A stretch of DNA of 64,000 nucleotides, from NCBI GenBank assembly GCA_018335755.1, contig JAGXRK010000032.1:1-64000 (forward strand). Direction: 5' to 3'. This document shows, piece by piece, positions 1 through 58,312 of the stretch (position 1 is the first letter of the stretch; each line of letters starts with the position of its first letter). The notes under the pieces were generated by a model that saw only the letters and a program-made list of their open reading frames with translations, had not been told where the DNA came from and ran no database searches. Made by a program: the position numbers and the translations under genes. The stretch is from Ignavibacterium sp. GTDB taxonomy: Bacteria > Bacteroidota > Ignavibacteria > Ignavibacteriales > Ignavibacteriaceae.

Positions 1-481
1 CACGAGCAGTCTCACTAATCTGACAATTTTTCACCAGTATCATTGGAAAGTTACTACTTATACTATAAATGCAAGTCCCAATACCATTTCCTTTACCATA
101 AATGTTAAAATTCTCAATGCTTCCATCAGTAGTAAAAATTATTGTTCTGTCTCCCTGTCCTATTCCATCAATTATTGTAGAATCCATAGACAACCCAATT
201 AAAGAAATTGGTGTGTTTATAACAAGGTTTTCAAAGTAGGTACCGTTGTCAACCAGTACGGTATCTCCCGGTTCACAGATGTTTATTGCATCCTGTATAA
301 CGTTAGCTGCATCTTCCCAGGTAAGGTATGGCGGTATGTTGCTGCCGGTTGGGGAGACGTAGCGGATTGTTGGGTTTATTTCGGTTGTGCTAGTTAGTGC
401 GATAATTATAATCGTAAGTAAATACGGCAAGTAGGCAGTCTTCAGTCGGCAGTCTGCAAGTTTTTTCTTACTCTTAATCAT
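1..481 (-). CDS. Secreted parallel beta-helix protein, N-terminal part (cut by window edge)
   Basis: The minus-strand frame is open from an ATG at 481 to base 1, giving about 160 codons; the C-terminus lies outside the window. The product starts with a basic stretch (MIKSKKKLADCR) and a hydrophobic segment around residues 18-32 that reads as a signal peptide. The mature region starts near TTEINPTIRYVSPTG and runs into a WEDAANVIQDAI element and a DTVLVDNGTYFENLVI element, typical of right-handed parallel beta-helix proteins. It is strongly similar over its mature N-terminus to the protein encoded at 56387-58312, so a T9SS C-terminal sorting domain is expected but not seen. AAAAGGAGT lies just upstream of the start. 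The upstream 166 bases match the leader of the paralogue. The first codons are built from hexanucleotide and heptanucleotide repeats. The ligand or substrate is unknown. Confidence 0.8.
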   Translation of the reverse strand, partial: MIKSKKKLADCRLKTAYLPYLLTIIIIALTSTTEINPTIRYVSPTGSNIPPYLTWEDAANVIQDAINICEPGDTVLVDNGTYFENLVINTPISLIGLSMDSTIIDGIGQGDRTIIFTTDGSIENFNIYGKGNGIGTCIYSISSNFPMILVKNCQISETAR

Positions 482-647
482 AATCTTACTCCTTTTTGTT
501 GGCATAATGATAGCACAGGCATAGCTTTGAGTTCGGTGGAAAGATGTTCAGGAAGTAATACGGCCTCATATGAAACTCCGCAGTAAATTGTGGTAAATTA
601 ACCAATCTTAACTTAAGAAGTGAAAGTGATAGATTCAAGAAAAAACG
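482..647 (-). repeat. 166-base conserved leader, copy A
   Basis: This stretch, read on the minus strand, aligns without gaps to 56221-56386 on the plus strand, with about 21 mismatches in 166 positions by hand count. The first 40 bases, beginning CGTTTTTTCTTGAATC, are identical in both copies. Similarity stops abruptly upstream of that point and runs downstream into the paralogous coding sequence. It ends with the AAAGGAGT ribosome binding site. A 60-codon frame crosses it, but the differences between copies fall mostly at amino-acid-changing positions, so I treat it as a non-coding leader. Function is unknown; a shared 5' untranslated or promoter element is the simplest reading. Confidence 0.75.
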
Positions 648-815: not shown

Positions 816-1535
816 ATGCTCAAGCTTATAAACCTTACAAAGAAATTCGGCAATTTTTTAGCGGTAAATAATATCAATATTGAAATTAATGCCGGCGATT
901 TTTTCGGTTTCCTCGGTCAGAATGGTGCAGGAAAAACCACTACAATTAAGATGATTACAGGGCTTTACGCTCCAACTGAAGGCAAAGTTTTAATAAACGG
1001 TTTAGATATACTCAAAGATCCTATTGAGGCAAAAAAACTCATTGGATACATTCCCGATCAGCCTTTTCTTTATGAAAAGCTAACCGGCAGAGAGTTCCTT
1101 TATTTCAGCGGCGGACTTTATCAGTTAGAAAAGAATTTACTTAAAAATAAGATTGATGAAACTATTGATGAACTGAAAATAAACCAGTGGGTAGATAAAC
1201 GAACTGAAGAATATTCGCAAGGTATGAGACAAAGAATTGCAATTGCGTCTGCCCTGCTCCATGATCCAAAACTTATTGTTGTGGATGAACCAATGGTAGG
1301 ACTTGATCCGCAAAGTGCTTTGGTAGTTAAAAATGTTCTCAAGCGTAAAGCATCAGAGGGAGTTGCAATTTTTATGTCAACTCACAGTCTGAACATTGCT
1401 GAAGAGATATGCACAATAATCGGAATTATAAAAGATGGCGTTATGATTTTCGAGGATAAAAAAGAAGTTATTGAACACATCAGGGGAACCGATCATCAGA
1501 ATCTTGAATCCTTATTCCTTGAGCTTACAAAGTAA
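816..1535 (+). CDS. ABC-2 type exporter, ATP-binding protein
   Basis: The 239-residue product is a complete single ABC ATPase domain. The Walker A motif GQNGAGKTT is at residues 34-42, the signature YSQGMRQR at about 133-140, Walker B LIVVDEP at about 153-159 followed by a GLDP D-loop, and the switch histidine in MSTHS near 190. The length fits single-domain ATPases that pair with separate membrane proteins. The next gene starts 6 bases downstream and encodes a large polytopic membrane protein, so the two probably form one exporter in the inner membrane. The CcmA/YhaQ-like subclass suggests export or membrane maintenance rather than import, but the substrate cannot be told from sequence. No strong Shine-Dalgarno sequence precedes the ATG. 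Confidence 0.88.
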   Translation: MLKLINLTKKFGNFLAVNNINIEINAGDFFGFLGQNGAGKTTTIKMITGLYAPTEGKVLINGLDILKDPIEAKKLIGYIPDQPFLYEKLTGREFLYFSGGLYQLEKNLLKNKIDETIDELKINQWVDKRTEEYSQGMRQRIAIASALLHDPKLIVVDEPMVGLDPQSALVVKNVLKRKASEGVAIFMSTHSLNIAEEICTIIGIIKDGVMIFEDKKEVIEHIRGTDHQNLESLFLELTK

Positions 1536-54340: not shown

Positions 54341-55180
54341 TTAAGTTAAAATATCTTTTCGGTTAAATATTATTAATGCTGAAGTAAAGAAAACAGCAAT
54401 ATGACCAATTAACACTCCCGTAGCTTTTATAACCTCAGCAGCATCAATCGGATCATCAAAAAATAGTCGCCAGCTCATTATATAATTTGTAAATAAATAC
54501 GGTTTTATCCCTGCGAAAAATTCAATATTAAGAGCAGATATAACCAGAAAAACAATTATAACCGCCATTGTGCTTATTATAGGACCAATTGCGTTTTCCA
54601 CCAAAGAGGAAAATAAAAATGCAAGCGATGCAACAACTGACATACCGAGAGAAGCAAATCCGTAACCAAGTGTAAATCGCCATAAAACATCTGTCTGCTT
54701 AAATATTATAATAGTTTCTGAACTAATTACAATCAATTCTCCAACGCCAAAAAGTATAATTCCAAGACCGAGACTTACAACAGCGAGCCATAAAACCAGC
54801 AAATTAGTGTAAATTATTCCAGCAAGAAATTTAGAAATAATAATTTGAGTCCGTGTTACCGGTCTGGTTACCAGCAGCCTGTAAGTACCAGAGGTCGCTT
54901 CTCCCGCAAGAAGATCTCCGGCAACCAGAGTAATTAGAAAAGGAATATGAACCGCAAGACTTGCGAGTGTAATATGTGAAACAAGATATCCGTTTAACAA
55001 ATTACCGACAAATACAAAAGACTGCTGAATATTCTGTGTCATAAAGTTAAGAGTTCTCTCCCCTTCCACCAGCATTGCGATATGAATCAGCGGGACGAGC
55101 AGTCCGATAGCAATAAAACCAATGTATGTTCTCCACTTCTTGAAAATTTTATAAAGTTCTATTCTGATAAGTGTAAGCAT
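54341..55180 (-). CDS. ABC-2 type permease
   Basis: The 279-residue protein has six hydrophobic helices at about residues 20-40, 58-80, 95-120, 135-155, 180-205 and 245-270, the arrangement of ABC-2 membrane subunits. GEATSGTYRLLVTRPVTRTQ is the conserved cytoplasmic loop seen in NosY-like and bacitracin-exporter permeases. It shares one base with the stop of the ATPase gene (TGATG), so it is translationally coupled to it. With the LolA-like protein it may move a lipid or peptide. Substrate is unknown. Confidence 0.85.
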   Translation of the reverse strand: MLTLIRIELYKIFKKWRTYIGFIAIGLLVPLIHIAMLVEGERTLNFMTQNIQQSFVFVGNLLNGYLVSHITLASLAVHIPFLITLVAGDLLAGEATSGTYRLLVTRPVTRTQIIISKFLAGIIYTNLLVLWLAVVSLGLGIILFGVGELIVISSETIIIFKQTDVLWRFTLGYGFASLGMSVVASLAFLFSSLVENAIGPIISTMAVIIVFLVISALNIEFFAGIKPYLFTNYIMSWRLFFDDPIDAAEVIKATGVLIGHIAVFFTSALIIFNRKDILT

Positions 55181-56100
55181 CAGGCAGCCTCATCTGTAAT
55201 TTTGAGGAAGTAATCTTCAAGAGATCTGGTGGGTATGACTGCGTTTACTTTTATATTATTTTCAACAAGAATTTTATTCAGAAGATGAACTTCTTCATTA
55301 TCCAGGTTAAAGATCAGTTTTCCTTCTGCAGATGATTCCAGTTTACTCCTCCAGGTTGTTTCTTTTATTATCTCAAGGGATAAGTTTACATCATCAACTT
55401 CAAAAATAACTTTAAGCAAATTGGATTTCAGCAAGTCCTGAACATAACCTTCAACCTTAGTCATTCCTTTGTTAATTATTATCATTCTATTTGCAACAAG
55501 TTCAACTTCGTAAAGGATGTGAGAAGAAAGAAAAATTGTTTTATTCTCATCCTTGCTCAGCTTTAGAATAAGATCGCGGATTTCCTTCATTCCCTGCGGA
55601 TCTAAACCGGTTGTCGGTTCATCAAGAATTATCAGTTCGGGGTCGTGCAATAGTGCCTGAGCAATTCCAAGACGCTGTTTCATTCCGTGTGAATATGTTT
55701 TAACTTTACTCTGGGCACGCTTTTCCAATCCAACAATTTCCAGCATTTCCATAATTCGTTTTTTTGATATTTCCTTGCCCGAAATTCTGCCTAAGATTTC
55801 AAGGTTCTTAAAAGCACTTAAATTGCGATAAAAATCGGGTTTTTCAACAATTGCACCGATATTTTTTAGTATATCAATCCTGTGTTCCGTTAGCGATTTA
55901 CCAAATATCTTTATTGTACCCTGGTTTGGACGAATAAGTGAAAGCAGCATTCTGATTGTTGTACTTTTCCCCGCTCCGTTTGGACCAAGAAAACCAAATA
56001 CATCTCCGCGGTAAACATTAAGATTAAGATTATCAACAGCTTTTATTTCTTTAAACTGTTTACTAAGATCTTTCACCTCAATTATTTTCTCTGATGTCAA
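55180..56100 (-). CDS. ABC transporter ATP-binding protein
   Basis: The 306-residue protein has Walker A FLGPNGAGKSTT near residue 37, signature YSHGMKQRLGIAQ near residue 138, Walker B LIILDEPTTGLDP near residue 158 and switch SSHILYEVE near residue 193. A C-terminal domain of about 85 residues (VHLLNKILVENNIKVNAVIP) resembles the tail of multidrug and bacitracin-type ATPases. It is the first gene of the minus-strand run ATPase-permease-LolA-like. It is divergent from the beta-helix gene at 56387, matching the arrangement at 1-816. Confidence 0.9.
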   Translation of the reverse strand: MTSEKIIEVKDLSKQFKEIKAVDNLNLNVYRGDVFGFLGPNGAGKSTTIRMLLSLIRPNQGTIKIFGKSLTEHRIDILKNIGAIVEKPDFYRNLSAFKNLEILGRISGKEISKKRIMEMLEIVGLEKRAQSKVKTYSHGMKQRLGIAQALLHDPELIILDEPTTGLDPQGMKEIRDLILKLSKDENKTIFLSSHILYEVELVANRMIIINKGMTKVEGYVQDLLKSNLLKVIFEVDDVNLSLEIIKETTWRSKLESSAEGKLIFNLDNEEVHLLNKILVENNIKVNAVIPTRSLEDYFLKITDEAA

Positions 56101-56220: not shown

Positions 56221-56386
56221 CGTTTTTTCTTGAATCTATCACTTTCACTTCTTAAGTTAACATTAGTTAAAAACTCACAATTCATTGCGGAGTTTCATAT
56301 GAAGCCGTATTACTTCCTGAACGTTTTTCTACCAAACCCAAAGCTATGCCTGCGCTATTATTACGCCAACCAAAAGGAGTGCGATT
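56221..56386 (+). repeat. 166-base conserved leader, copy B
   Basis: This is the plus-strand counterpart of 482-647: ungapped, 166 bases, about 21 differences, identical in its first 40 bases. It ends with AAAAGGAGT, followed 8 bases later by the ATG of the beta-helix gene. A short frame at 56185-56400 crosses it and is not thought to be coding. Confidence 0.75.
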
Positions 56387-58312
56387 ATGTTTACGAGTAA
56401 GAGTAAGAACAAGAGCAAGAAAAAACTTGCCGACTGCAGACTGAAGACTGAAGACACCCGGCATTCACCACATTTTGCCTACTGCCTATCGAAGCTTGCG
56501 AAGATCCCGCTTGCGGGACTGCCTACTGCCTACTTATTTCGCCTACTGCTTACCGCCTATTGCCTGCTTGTATTCACAACCGAAATAAACCCAACAATAC
56601 GCTACGTAAGCCCAACCGGCAACAACATACCGCCATACCTAAGCTGGGAAGATGCGGCTAACTCAATACAGGATGCAATTGATGTTTGTGAAGCAGGCGA
56701 TACTGTACTTGTTGACAACGGCACCTACTATGAAAACCTGGTTATAAATACACAGATTTCTTTAATGGGGTTATCAATAGATTCTACAATAATTGATGGA
56801 ACTGGGCTTGGAGATTACACCATAGTTTTCAATGCAACTGGTAGTATTGAGAATTTTGATATTTATGGAAAGGGGTTGGGCACTTCAGGAACAAGAGTTA
56901 TTCGTTCAAACAAATTGTTTACCAAGGTTAAAGTAAATAATTGTCGACTTTCGAATGCAGGAGTTGGTATTAGTATGGTTGGTGGAGATGTAATGGCTGA
57001 AGAGCTTGTGATCAAAAATACAGTAAGGGGATTTAATCTTTTTGGAGAAAATGAAAACTATGTTTCAAACTGTATAATAATTCTAGAGAATTCAAGCGCA
57101 AGAGGTATAAGTATAGGAGTTGCTTCAAATATAAATCATGTTATTTCCGATAATATAATCTTAAATACAGGTATTGAAAATTCTTCTGGTAGAGGTATTG
57201 ATTTACTCTGGCCAAGGAGGGTCTATATTTTTAGTAATATAATAGGCGGCTTTGGATTAACCATAAGAGTTGATGCAATTACTGATACCGTTTTTATAAT
57301 TAATAACCTACTACTATATAAAGGAAACAGAGGACTAACAAATGATGGAAGCATACATACAGAAAATGATAATGCGGTAATCAAAAATAATATTCTGGCA
57401 AATAATGCAAACAATGCAGTTCGTGGATTTCCGCCCTACGTTGATATGGATTACAATATTTTCTGGAATAATGAAAATGATCTTTATGGATTAACCTACG
57501 GCGACAGTGACAGGGTAGCGGATCCGATGTTTGTAAAAGACACTCTGCCAAATCCCGATTTAGATTTTGATTACCGTTTACAGGCATACTCACCAGGAAT
57601 AAACGCAGGCGATCCTGACATTCTTGATGTTGACGGCAGCAGATCAGACATAGGCTTATACATTGGCGGAACTTATAGATACAAGGACTTACCACCGAGA
57701 GCACCAGTAAACCTTTCTGCAATAGTAGATTCAAACGGTATTTTCCTTAACTGGAACAGGAACAGCGAGGCTGATACATCACATTATAATGTTTACAGGG
57801 ATACGGTAAGTAACTTTACAATAGATTCAACAAAACTTATATCATCACAGACAGATACATTCTTTATCCAGCCGCCGCCATATCAAAACAGCCGGTATGT
57901 TTACAAGATAACCTGTGCCGATAACCAGGGAAATGAATCACTGCCATCCGAAGAAATAATTATTGATGTTACATCATTGACAACAAATGACTATCCAATG
58001 ACAATTAATGACTATTTGCTTTACCAGAACTATCCAAATCCATTTAATCCATCTACAAAGATAGGATATAAACTAAAAGACAGAGGATACGTAAAGCTGA
58101 TGGTATATGATATAAGAGGATCGCTTGTGAGTGTGTTAGTAAATAAAGAACAGGAAGCAGGATATTATGAAATAGAATTCAACGTAGGGAACGGACTCCC
58201 GTCCGTTCCGGATAACCTGGCAAGCGGTATCTACCTATACAGAATCGAAGTAATAGGCGAAGGAAGAATTCCAAAATTTTCTGATATGAAGAAGATGGTA
58301 TTTATAAAGTAA
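56387..58312 (+). CDS. T9SS-sorted secreted beta-helix protein with FnIII domain
   Basis: The 641-residue protein starts with a lysine-rich stretch coded by hexanucleotide repeats. An unusually long signal region coded by heptanucleotide repeats follows, ending LLTAYCLLVF near residue 64. The mature protein begins TTEINPTIRYVSPTG. Residues about 80-420 form a parallel beta-helix, with repeated N-x-I and N-N-I turns. A fibronectin type III domain follows (about 430-520, PRAPVNLSAIVDSNGIFLNW). The C-terminus is a T9SS sorting domain with YQNYPNPFNPSTKIGY and a final basic tail. The protein should be secreted and anchored or released by the T9SS. It is a paralogue of the protein at 1-481. Binding target is unknown. 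Confidence 0.88.
   Translation: MFTSKSKNKSKKKLADCRLKTEDTRHSPHFAYCLSKLAKIPLAGLPTAYLFRLLLTAYCLLVFTTEINPTIRYVSPTGNNIPPYLSWEDAANSIQDAIDVCEAGDTVLVDNGTYYENLVINTQISLMGLSIDSTIIDGTGLGDYTIVFNATGSIENFDIYGKGLGTSGTRVIRSNKLFTKVKVNNCRLSNAGVGISMVGGDVMAEELVIKNTVRGFNLFGENENYVSNCIIILENSSARGISIGVASNINHVISDNIILNTGIENSSGRGIDLLWPRRVYIFSNIIGGFGLTIRVDAITDTVFIINNLLLYKGNRGLTNDGSIHTENDNAVIKNNILANNANNAVRGFPPYVDMDYNIFWNNENDLYGLTYGDSDRVADPMFVKDTLPNPDLDFDYRLQAYSPGINAGDPDILDVDGSRSDIGLYIGGTYRYKDLPPRAPVNLSAIVDSNGIFLNWNRNSEADTSHYNVYRDTVSNFTIDSTKLISSQTDTFFIQPPPYQNSRYVYKITCADNQGNESLPSEEIIIDVTSLTTNDYPMTINDYLLYQNYPNPFNPSTKIGYKLKDRGYVKLMVYDIRGSLVSVLVNKEQEAGYYEIEFNVGNGLPSVPDNLASGIYLYRIEVIGEGRIPKFSDMKKMVFIK
56428..56575 (+). repeat. 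Degenerate heptanucleotide repeats in signal-peptide code
   Basis: The stretch is composed largely of seven-base units such as GCCGACT, GCAGACT, GAAGACT and GCCTACT, with several tandem copies at 56428-56456 and 56519-56572. A CCCGC-TT-GCGGG palindrome lies at about 56505-56516. Seven is not a multiple of three, so gain or loss of one unit would shift the frame. The paralogue at 1-481 has a shorter set of the same units at about 420-460. Confidence 0.65.

What the first reader, a model, noticed from the sequence alone, without database searches (positions are those of the whole stretch)
482..647. Same 166-base leader precedes two paralogous T9SS-type cargo genes
Bases 482-647 (minus) and 56221-56386 (plus) align without gaps at about 87% identity, with a 40-base block that is identical. 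Upstream similarity stops sharply and downstream it continues into paralogous coding sequence. Mutations in the crossing short frame are mostly non-synonymous, so selection on a peptide is unlikely. A conserved 5' leader RNA or shared promoter controlling a family of secreted proteins is a good candidate for an undescribed element.
Basis: partly seen in the sequence, partly recalled or inferred. Interest (0 to 1): 0.65.

Follow-up and report, generated by a model that had tools for sequence, protein, structure and literature searches.

The report
Shared promoter of shuffled surface-protein genes
The repeated 166-base stretch is the promoter and untranslated start of a small family of secreted-protein genes whose front ends are kept alike within each genome by recombination while the middle of the protein varies freely; it is not a new regulatory RNA, but it exposed a conserved-ends, variable-middle design in many Ignavibacteria.

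Summary
Bases 482-647 (-) and 56221-56386 (+) match over 166 bases without gaps at 87%, and upstream similarity stops abruptly.

The own genome (4.27 Mb, 73 contigs) has four copies. They lie before exactly the four genes sharing one N-terminal beta-helix domain, not before the roughly 150 other T9SS-tail genes.

Most likely the segment is an ordinary promoter (the 40-base identical block spans TTGAAT-N17-TAAGTT), a 5' UTR, and a relic of the ancestral start codon that now opens a 27-33-codon upstream ORF. No RNA-structure signal, Rfam match or peptide selection was found.

It is not a simple flank of gene duplication. All 47 informative leader sites group the four copies one way and all 27 coding sites another. 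Relatives, including near-closed genomes, repeat the pattern: promoter, signal peptide and first ~65-75 beta-helix codons are alike within a genome, the next ~100-200 codons are synonymously saturated, and fibronectin/T9SS tails are often alike again. The leader is thus the outer edge of a recombining 5' frame of conserved-ends, variable-middle secreted proteins. No silent donor cassettes were found for the two cassettes searched, so programmed antigenic variation is unproven.

The parts
482..647 (-). leader copy C32a (type A): promoter, 5' UTR, relic start/uORF, ribosome-binding site
   Evidence: 87% identical to 56221-56386 without gaps
610..638 (-). putative promoter TTGAAT-N17-TAAGTT, inside the 40-base identical block (608-647)
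   Evidence: same layout upstream of homologues in 10 of 29 genomes, 1/63 control genes; position
486..569 (-). upstream ORF of 27 codons (MRPYYFLN...KKE), relic of the ancestral start region
   Evidence: start aligns with the true start MKPKYFL of Ignavibacterium sp. Gw_Inlet_bin_290 homologues
1..481 (-). 5' part of T9SS-type beta-helix gene C32a, truncated by the contig end; bases 1-253 identical to C61:35-287
56221..56386 (+). leader copy C32b (type A)
56230..56258 (+). putative promoter TTGAAT-N17-TAAGTT
56299..56400 (+). upstream ORF of 33 codons (MKPYYFLN...YVYE), overlapping the main start
56387..58312 (+). secreted beta-helix protein gene, 641 aa, fibronectin-III-like domain and T9SS C-terminal tail
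56591..56785 (+). homogenised first 65 codons of the beta-helix (from TIRYVS)
   Evidence: within-genome pS median 0.39 against 0.67 between genomes
56816..57415 (+). approximate variable cassette (beta-helix coils), synonymously saturated between paralogues; end placed by analogy with near-closed genomes
57704..58309 (+). fibronectin-III-like domain and T9SS tail

Best explanation
The 166-base segment is the native promoter plus 5' untranslated region of a four-member family of T9SS-exported beta-helix proteins. Shown by sequence: the identical 40-base block contains TTGAAT-N17-TAAGTT; a second ribosome-binding site and ATG follow 86-88 nt after an older start site whose codon now opens a short upstream ORF ending at the new start; leader and gene body have been reassorted; front ends are homogenised within genomes while the beta-helix middle is not. 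Inferred: homologous recombination (gene conversion) uses the promoter, signal peptide and first coils as one conserved arm and the fibronectin/tail region as the other, so new middles are expressed from a constant promoter and export frame; selection favours variety in the exposed beta-helix.
For: Four leaders sit exactly at the four family genes. The leader supports C32a+C32b against C61+C66 at 47/47 informative sites and the coding part C32a+C61 against C32b+C66 at 27/27, with one switch (Fisher 8.5e-21). Within-genome pS is 0.39 in codons 1-65 and 0.63 in 66-130; between genomes about 0.67 in both, so codon constraint is not the reason. The same pattern occurs in the one-contig genomes G019 and G008 and the 6-contig genome G010: flanks pS mostly 0-0.4, middle 0.5-1.0. 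Within-genome leader sharing in G066, G068, G060, G019. Promoter layout T[TC]G-N20-TAAGTT in 21/54 family upstreams from 10 genomes, 1/63 controls, and before secA and other genes.
Against: No transcription data, so the promoter is inferred. Three of four own copies lie at contig ends of a MAG with 7.5% contamination. In the own genome the promoter pattern is not enriched genome-wide (70 against 257 for the reversed pattern). Strong purifying selection on the N-terminal protein contributes to its similarity. G010 paralogues carry an extra ~330-aa N-terminal region, so there the homogenised 5' part is largely coding. No donor copies beyond the family members themselves were found.
Confidence: 0.78

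Rival explanations
1. An undescribed structured leader RNA (riboswitch-like or protein-binding) controls the family.
For: About 130 nt between promoter and main start; a 5-bp hairpin at the relic start keeps two pairs through double changes.
Against: Folding no better than shuffles in five leaders; consensus energy only -2.5 kcal/mol; no Rfam match; leaders of other genomes are not similar and most lack the second half altogether.
Confidence: 0.05
2. Plain whole-gene duplication: the leader is simply the copied flank, diverging neutrally.
For: Leader is found only with the family genes; family clearly arose by duplication (tandem pairs in G019, G034, G013, G049).
Against: Leader and coding sequence have incompatible groupings; synonymous divergence jumps from 0.2-0.4 to saturation inside the gene and falls back near the tail in near-closed genomes.
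Confidence: 0.1
3. The upstream ORF is a translated leader peptide that couples or attenuates translation of the main gene.
For: In all six two-start leaders (own four, two in RBG_16_34_14) it is open for 27-33 codons and stops between -4 and +14 of the main ATG.
Against: Peptide not under selection (pooled pS about 0.11, pN about 0.12); an overlapping ATGA stop arises by chance in one frame; most relatives start the protein at the upstream site and have no uORF.
Confidence: 0.12
4. Assembly artefact: contig ends in a repeat join wrong leaders to bodies.
For: C32, C61 and C66 all begin inside such genes and C32:1-253 equals C61:35-287.
Against: Identity between C32a and C61 decays gradually upstream of base 253 rather than at one join; the same mosaic is seen in one-contig and 6-contig assemblies; the window copy 56221-58312 is internal and complete.
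Confidence: 0.04

Closest known systems
Porphyromonas gingivalis T9SS surface proteins diversified by domain rearrangement and allelic exchange (PMC5266723)
   Same: T9SS-exported surface proteins diversified by recombination between homologous stretches
   Different: Gingipain/adhesin domains, between strains; here a paralogous beta-helix family with homogenised promoter and N-terminus inside one genome, in Ignavibacteria
Campylobacter fetus sapA/sapB S-layer gene family (PMC4943207 for copy number and sapAB recombinants; the conserved 5' region and promoter inversion are from my own knowledge)
   Same: Several copies, conserved 5' end, divergent remainder, recombination
   Different: There a single expression site with an invertible promoter; here each copy has its own promoter and no inversion region was seen
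Bacteroidota sigma-A promoters with -7 box TAnnTTTG (PMC9723704)
   Same: TAnnTT core of the downstream box
   Different: Here TAAGTTA/C without the final G in most copies, with T[TC]G 20 bases upstream

Membership tests
Vegetative (sigma-A type) promoter | -35-like and -10-like boxes with fixed spacing upstream of unrelated genes | tested here: met
   TYGCNTYNC-N14-TAAGTT before secA (3 genomes), lepB, cas3-like and YCF48-type genes; 24 matches against 9 for the reversed pattern in 14 genomes
Vegetative (sigma-A type) promoter | mapped transcription start | not testable with these tools
   no RNA-seq
Structured cis-regulatory RNA | stable conserved fold with covariation | tested here: not met
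T9SS cargo | signal peptide and C-terminal sorting domain | tested here: inconclusive
   tail matched below curated cut-offs (24 of 27 bits; 20.2 of 23) but homologous tails and beta-sandwich model agree; only for the complete copy
Antigenic-variation family with silent archive | silent, promoterless donor cassettes | tested here: not met
   cassette searches in G010, G019, G008 and the own genome find only family members
Antigenic-variation family with silent archive | switching within a clone | not testable with these tools
   needs reads or cultures
Gene family under concerted evolution | paralogues more alike within than between genomes at synonymous sites | tested here: met
   pS 0.39 within, 0.55 same genus, 0.67 between, codons 1-65

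The most novel reading that the evidence does not exclude
Ignavibacteria carry a T9SS-exported beta-helix protein family in which promoter, signal and first coils act as a constant 5' cassette, the last domains as a constant 3' cassette, and recombination swaps the 200-codon middle often enough to vary the cell surface within populations.
Probability: 0.2. Interest if true: 0.65.

Novelty: new variant of a known kind. Interest (0 to 1): 0.4.

Why it matters
It turns a supposed regulatory element into evidence for recombination at the front of secreted-protein genes, and points to a conserved-ends, variable-middle surface or secreted protein family across many uncultured Ignavibacteria. The sharp synonymous break gives a direct way to find such families, which break assemblies and are easily missed.

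Tried and rejected
Leader elsewhere in the own genome: only low-complexity or chance matches outside the four genes. Leader DNA in 58 relatives: one chance 27-base match inside an unrelated gene. RNA fold, Rfam and covariation: nothing beyond a 5-bp hairpin. Selected leader peptide: rejected. Family-specific sigma factor: rejected as unnecessary, because the same promoter pattern precedes secA and others. Silent donor cassettes: none found. Fold search: best matches are fibronectin-III domains of no functional help. Literature searches for gene conversion in Ignavibacteria T9SS genes gave nothing; the library is incomplete.

Full report
1. Observation. The two segments align over 166 bases without gaps at 87.3%, with the first 40 bases identical; similarity upstream is at background. 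The window is bases 1-64000 of contig C32 (125 kb) of a 4.27 Mb genome in 73 contigs (completeness 99.98%, contamination 7.47%). Two more copies lie at C61 and C66; those two are 98% alike and about 62% like the window copies. Three of the four copies sit at the very start of a contig, so those genes are incomplete.

2. Which genes. A search with the N-terminal beta-helix segment finds exactly four strong matches in the genome, the same four loci. The leader therefore marks one small paralogous family and not T9SS cargo at large. Upstream neighbours differ: two ABC-transporter ATPase genes, both divergently oriented (window 816-1535 and 55180-56100), malate dehydrogenase (C66) and a ClpC-like ATPase (C61) (the last two named from the translated sequence by inspection).

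3. Anatomy. The 40-base identical block contains TTGAAT, 17 bases, TAAGTT; the C61/C66 copies have TTGCAA-N17-TAAGTT. In 54 upstream regions of homologues from 29 genomes, T[TC]G-N20-TAAGTT occurs in 21 (10 genomes), against 1 of 63 other genes on the same loci and 0.7% of shuffled sequences. These 54 are not independent, since copies within a genome share leaders, and the pattern was chosen after seeing the sequences. A stricter form scanned over 14 genomes gives 24 matches against 9 for the reversed control; besides family members it precedes secA in three genomes, lepB, a cas3-like gene and YCF48-type secreted-protein genes. I read it as an ordinary vegetative promoter.

4. Relic start. In most relatives the protein starts about 40-46 bases after TAAGTT, for example MKPKYFLFFF... 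(Gw_Inlet_bin_290) or VKLKYFLVLL... (UR.bin72). In the window the same place carries ATGAAGCCGTATTACTTCCTG (MKPYYFL), but that frame is now a 27-33-codon upstream ORF, and the main gene starts 86-88 bases further on behind its own AAGGAG. The two copies in Ignavibacteria bacterium RBG_16_34_14 have the same two-start layout. The upstream peptide shows no purifying selection (5.5 synonymous differences in 52 sites against 24.5 non-synonymous in 197, pooled over three pairs).

5. No RNA element. None of five leaders folds better than shuffles, the alignment supports only a 5-bp hairpin, and Rfam has no match.

6. Reassortment. Among the four own copies, all 47 informative leader sites group C32a with C32b and C61 with C66. 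All 27 informative sites from RYVSP on group C32a with C61 and C32b with C66 (one switch in 79 sites; Fisher 8.5e-21). C32a and C61 are identical over 253 bases of body while their leaders differ by 38%. Leader and body thus have separate histories.

7. A general pattern. In relatives (36 of 116 genomes have the family at E <= 1e-12) paralogues of one genome share leader and 5' coding sequence that are mostly not shared between genomes. Synonymous differences per site in the first 65 codons have a median of 0.39 within genomes, 0.55 within a genus and 0.67 (saturated) between genomes; in codons 66-130 they are 0.63-0.66 everywhere. This excludes codon-level constraint as the cause and indicates homogenisation of the 5' part. 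In better assemblies the tail is often alike too. In G010 (6 contigs) three genes are about 93-97% identical before codon 75, 35-60% over codons 75-275, and 90-97% afterwards. In G008 (1 contig) one pair is about 93% identical at the start, 48-69% over codons 25-175, and 96-100% after; one member of that pair is truncated. G019 (1 contig) behaves alike. G010 genes carry an extra ~330-aa N-terminal region, so there the homogenised 5' part is mostly coding.

8. Protein. The AlphaFold2 model (mean pLDDT 76.7, 19 sequences) is a beta-helix of about residues 70-410 followed by a fibronectin-like domain and a C-terminal beta-sandwich. The variable segment is the run of middle coils. Database matches are uninformative about function.

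9. Mechanism. Shown: reassortment, within-genome homogenisation of front ends, saturated middles. Inferred: homologous recombination between paralogues with constant ends as arms, and selection for variety in the exposed helix. Not shown: switching within a clone. Cassette searches (one from G010, searched in three genomes, and one from the own genome) find no silent archive, which argues against a programmed Neisseria- or Campylobacter-like system and for slow recombination.

10. Verdict. The regulatory-RNA idea is not supported; the shared-promoter idea is supported in an ordinary sense. The more interesting result is the recombining family behind it.

Noticed in passing
L299, L298, L301 (G010) and L304/L305 (G008), codons ~75-275 and ~25-175 after the RYVS motif: Paralogues 90-98% identical at both ends with a synonymously saturated central beta-helix segment: a conserved-ends, variable-middle family in near-closed genomes.
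   Followed up: yes
C66:~1170-1330 and C61:~700-850 (L031, L032): The two type-B leaders share a further ~150 bases upstream, including a terminator hairpin (AACCCGGTTCAATTTGAATCGGGTT) and a REP-like palindrome (TCATTTCGAATCCGGCTTCAGCCGGATGAGAAATCT), although they follow unrelated genes.
   Followed up: partly
window 56405-56590; L031 850-1000: Signal-peptide coding is made of short imperfect repeats (AAGAGTAAG; CTGCCTA heptamers read as LPTAYCL) with palindromes inserted in frame; copies differ by large indels here, a possible slippage-prone region.
   Followed up: no
L304 (G008:C1:2356500-2360000): One family member is interrupted after 321 codons although its DNA stays about 98% identical to its intact paralogue beyond that point.
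   Followed up: no
G010:C1:499897-500489: A family member split into two reading frames (233 and 433 aa), a likely frameshifted copy.
   Followed up: no
window 816-1535 (+) and 55180-56100 (-): Both type-A leaders lie divergently next to ABC-transporter ATPase genes that are related to each other only as general family members; the intergenic DNA is not similar.
   Followed up: partly
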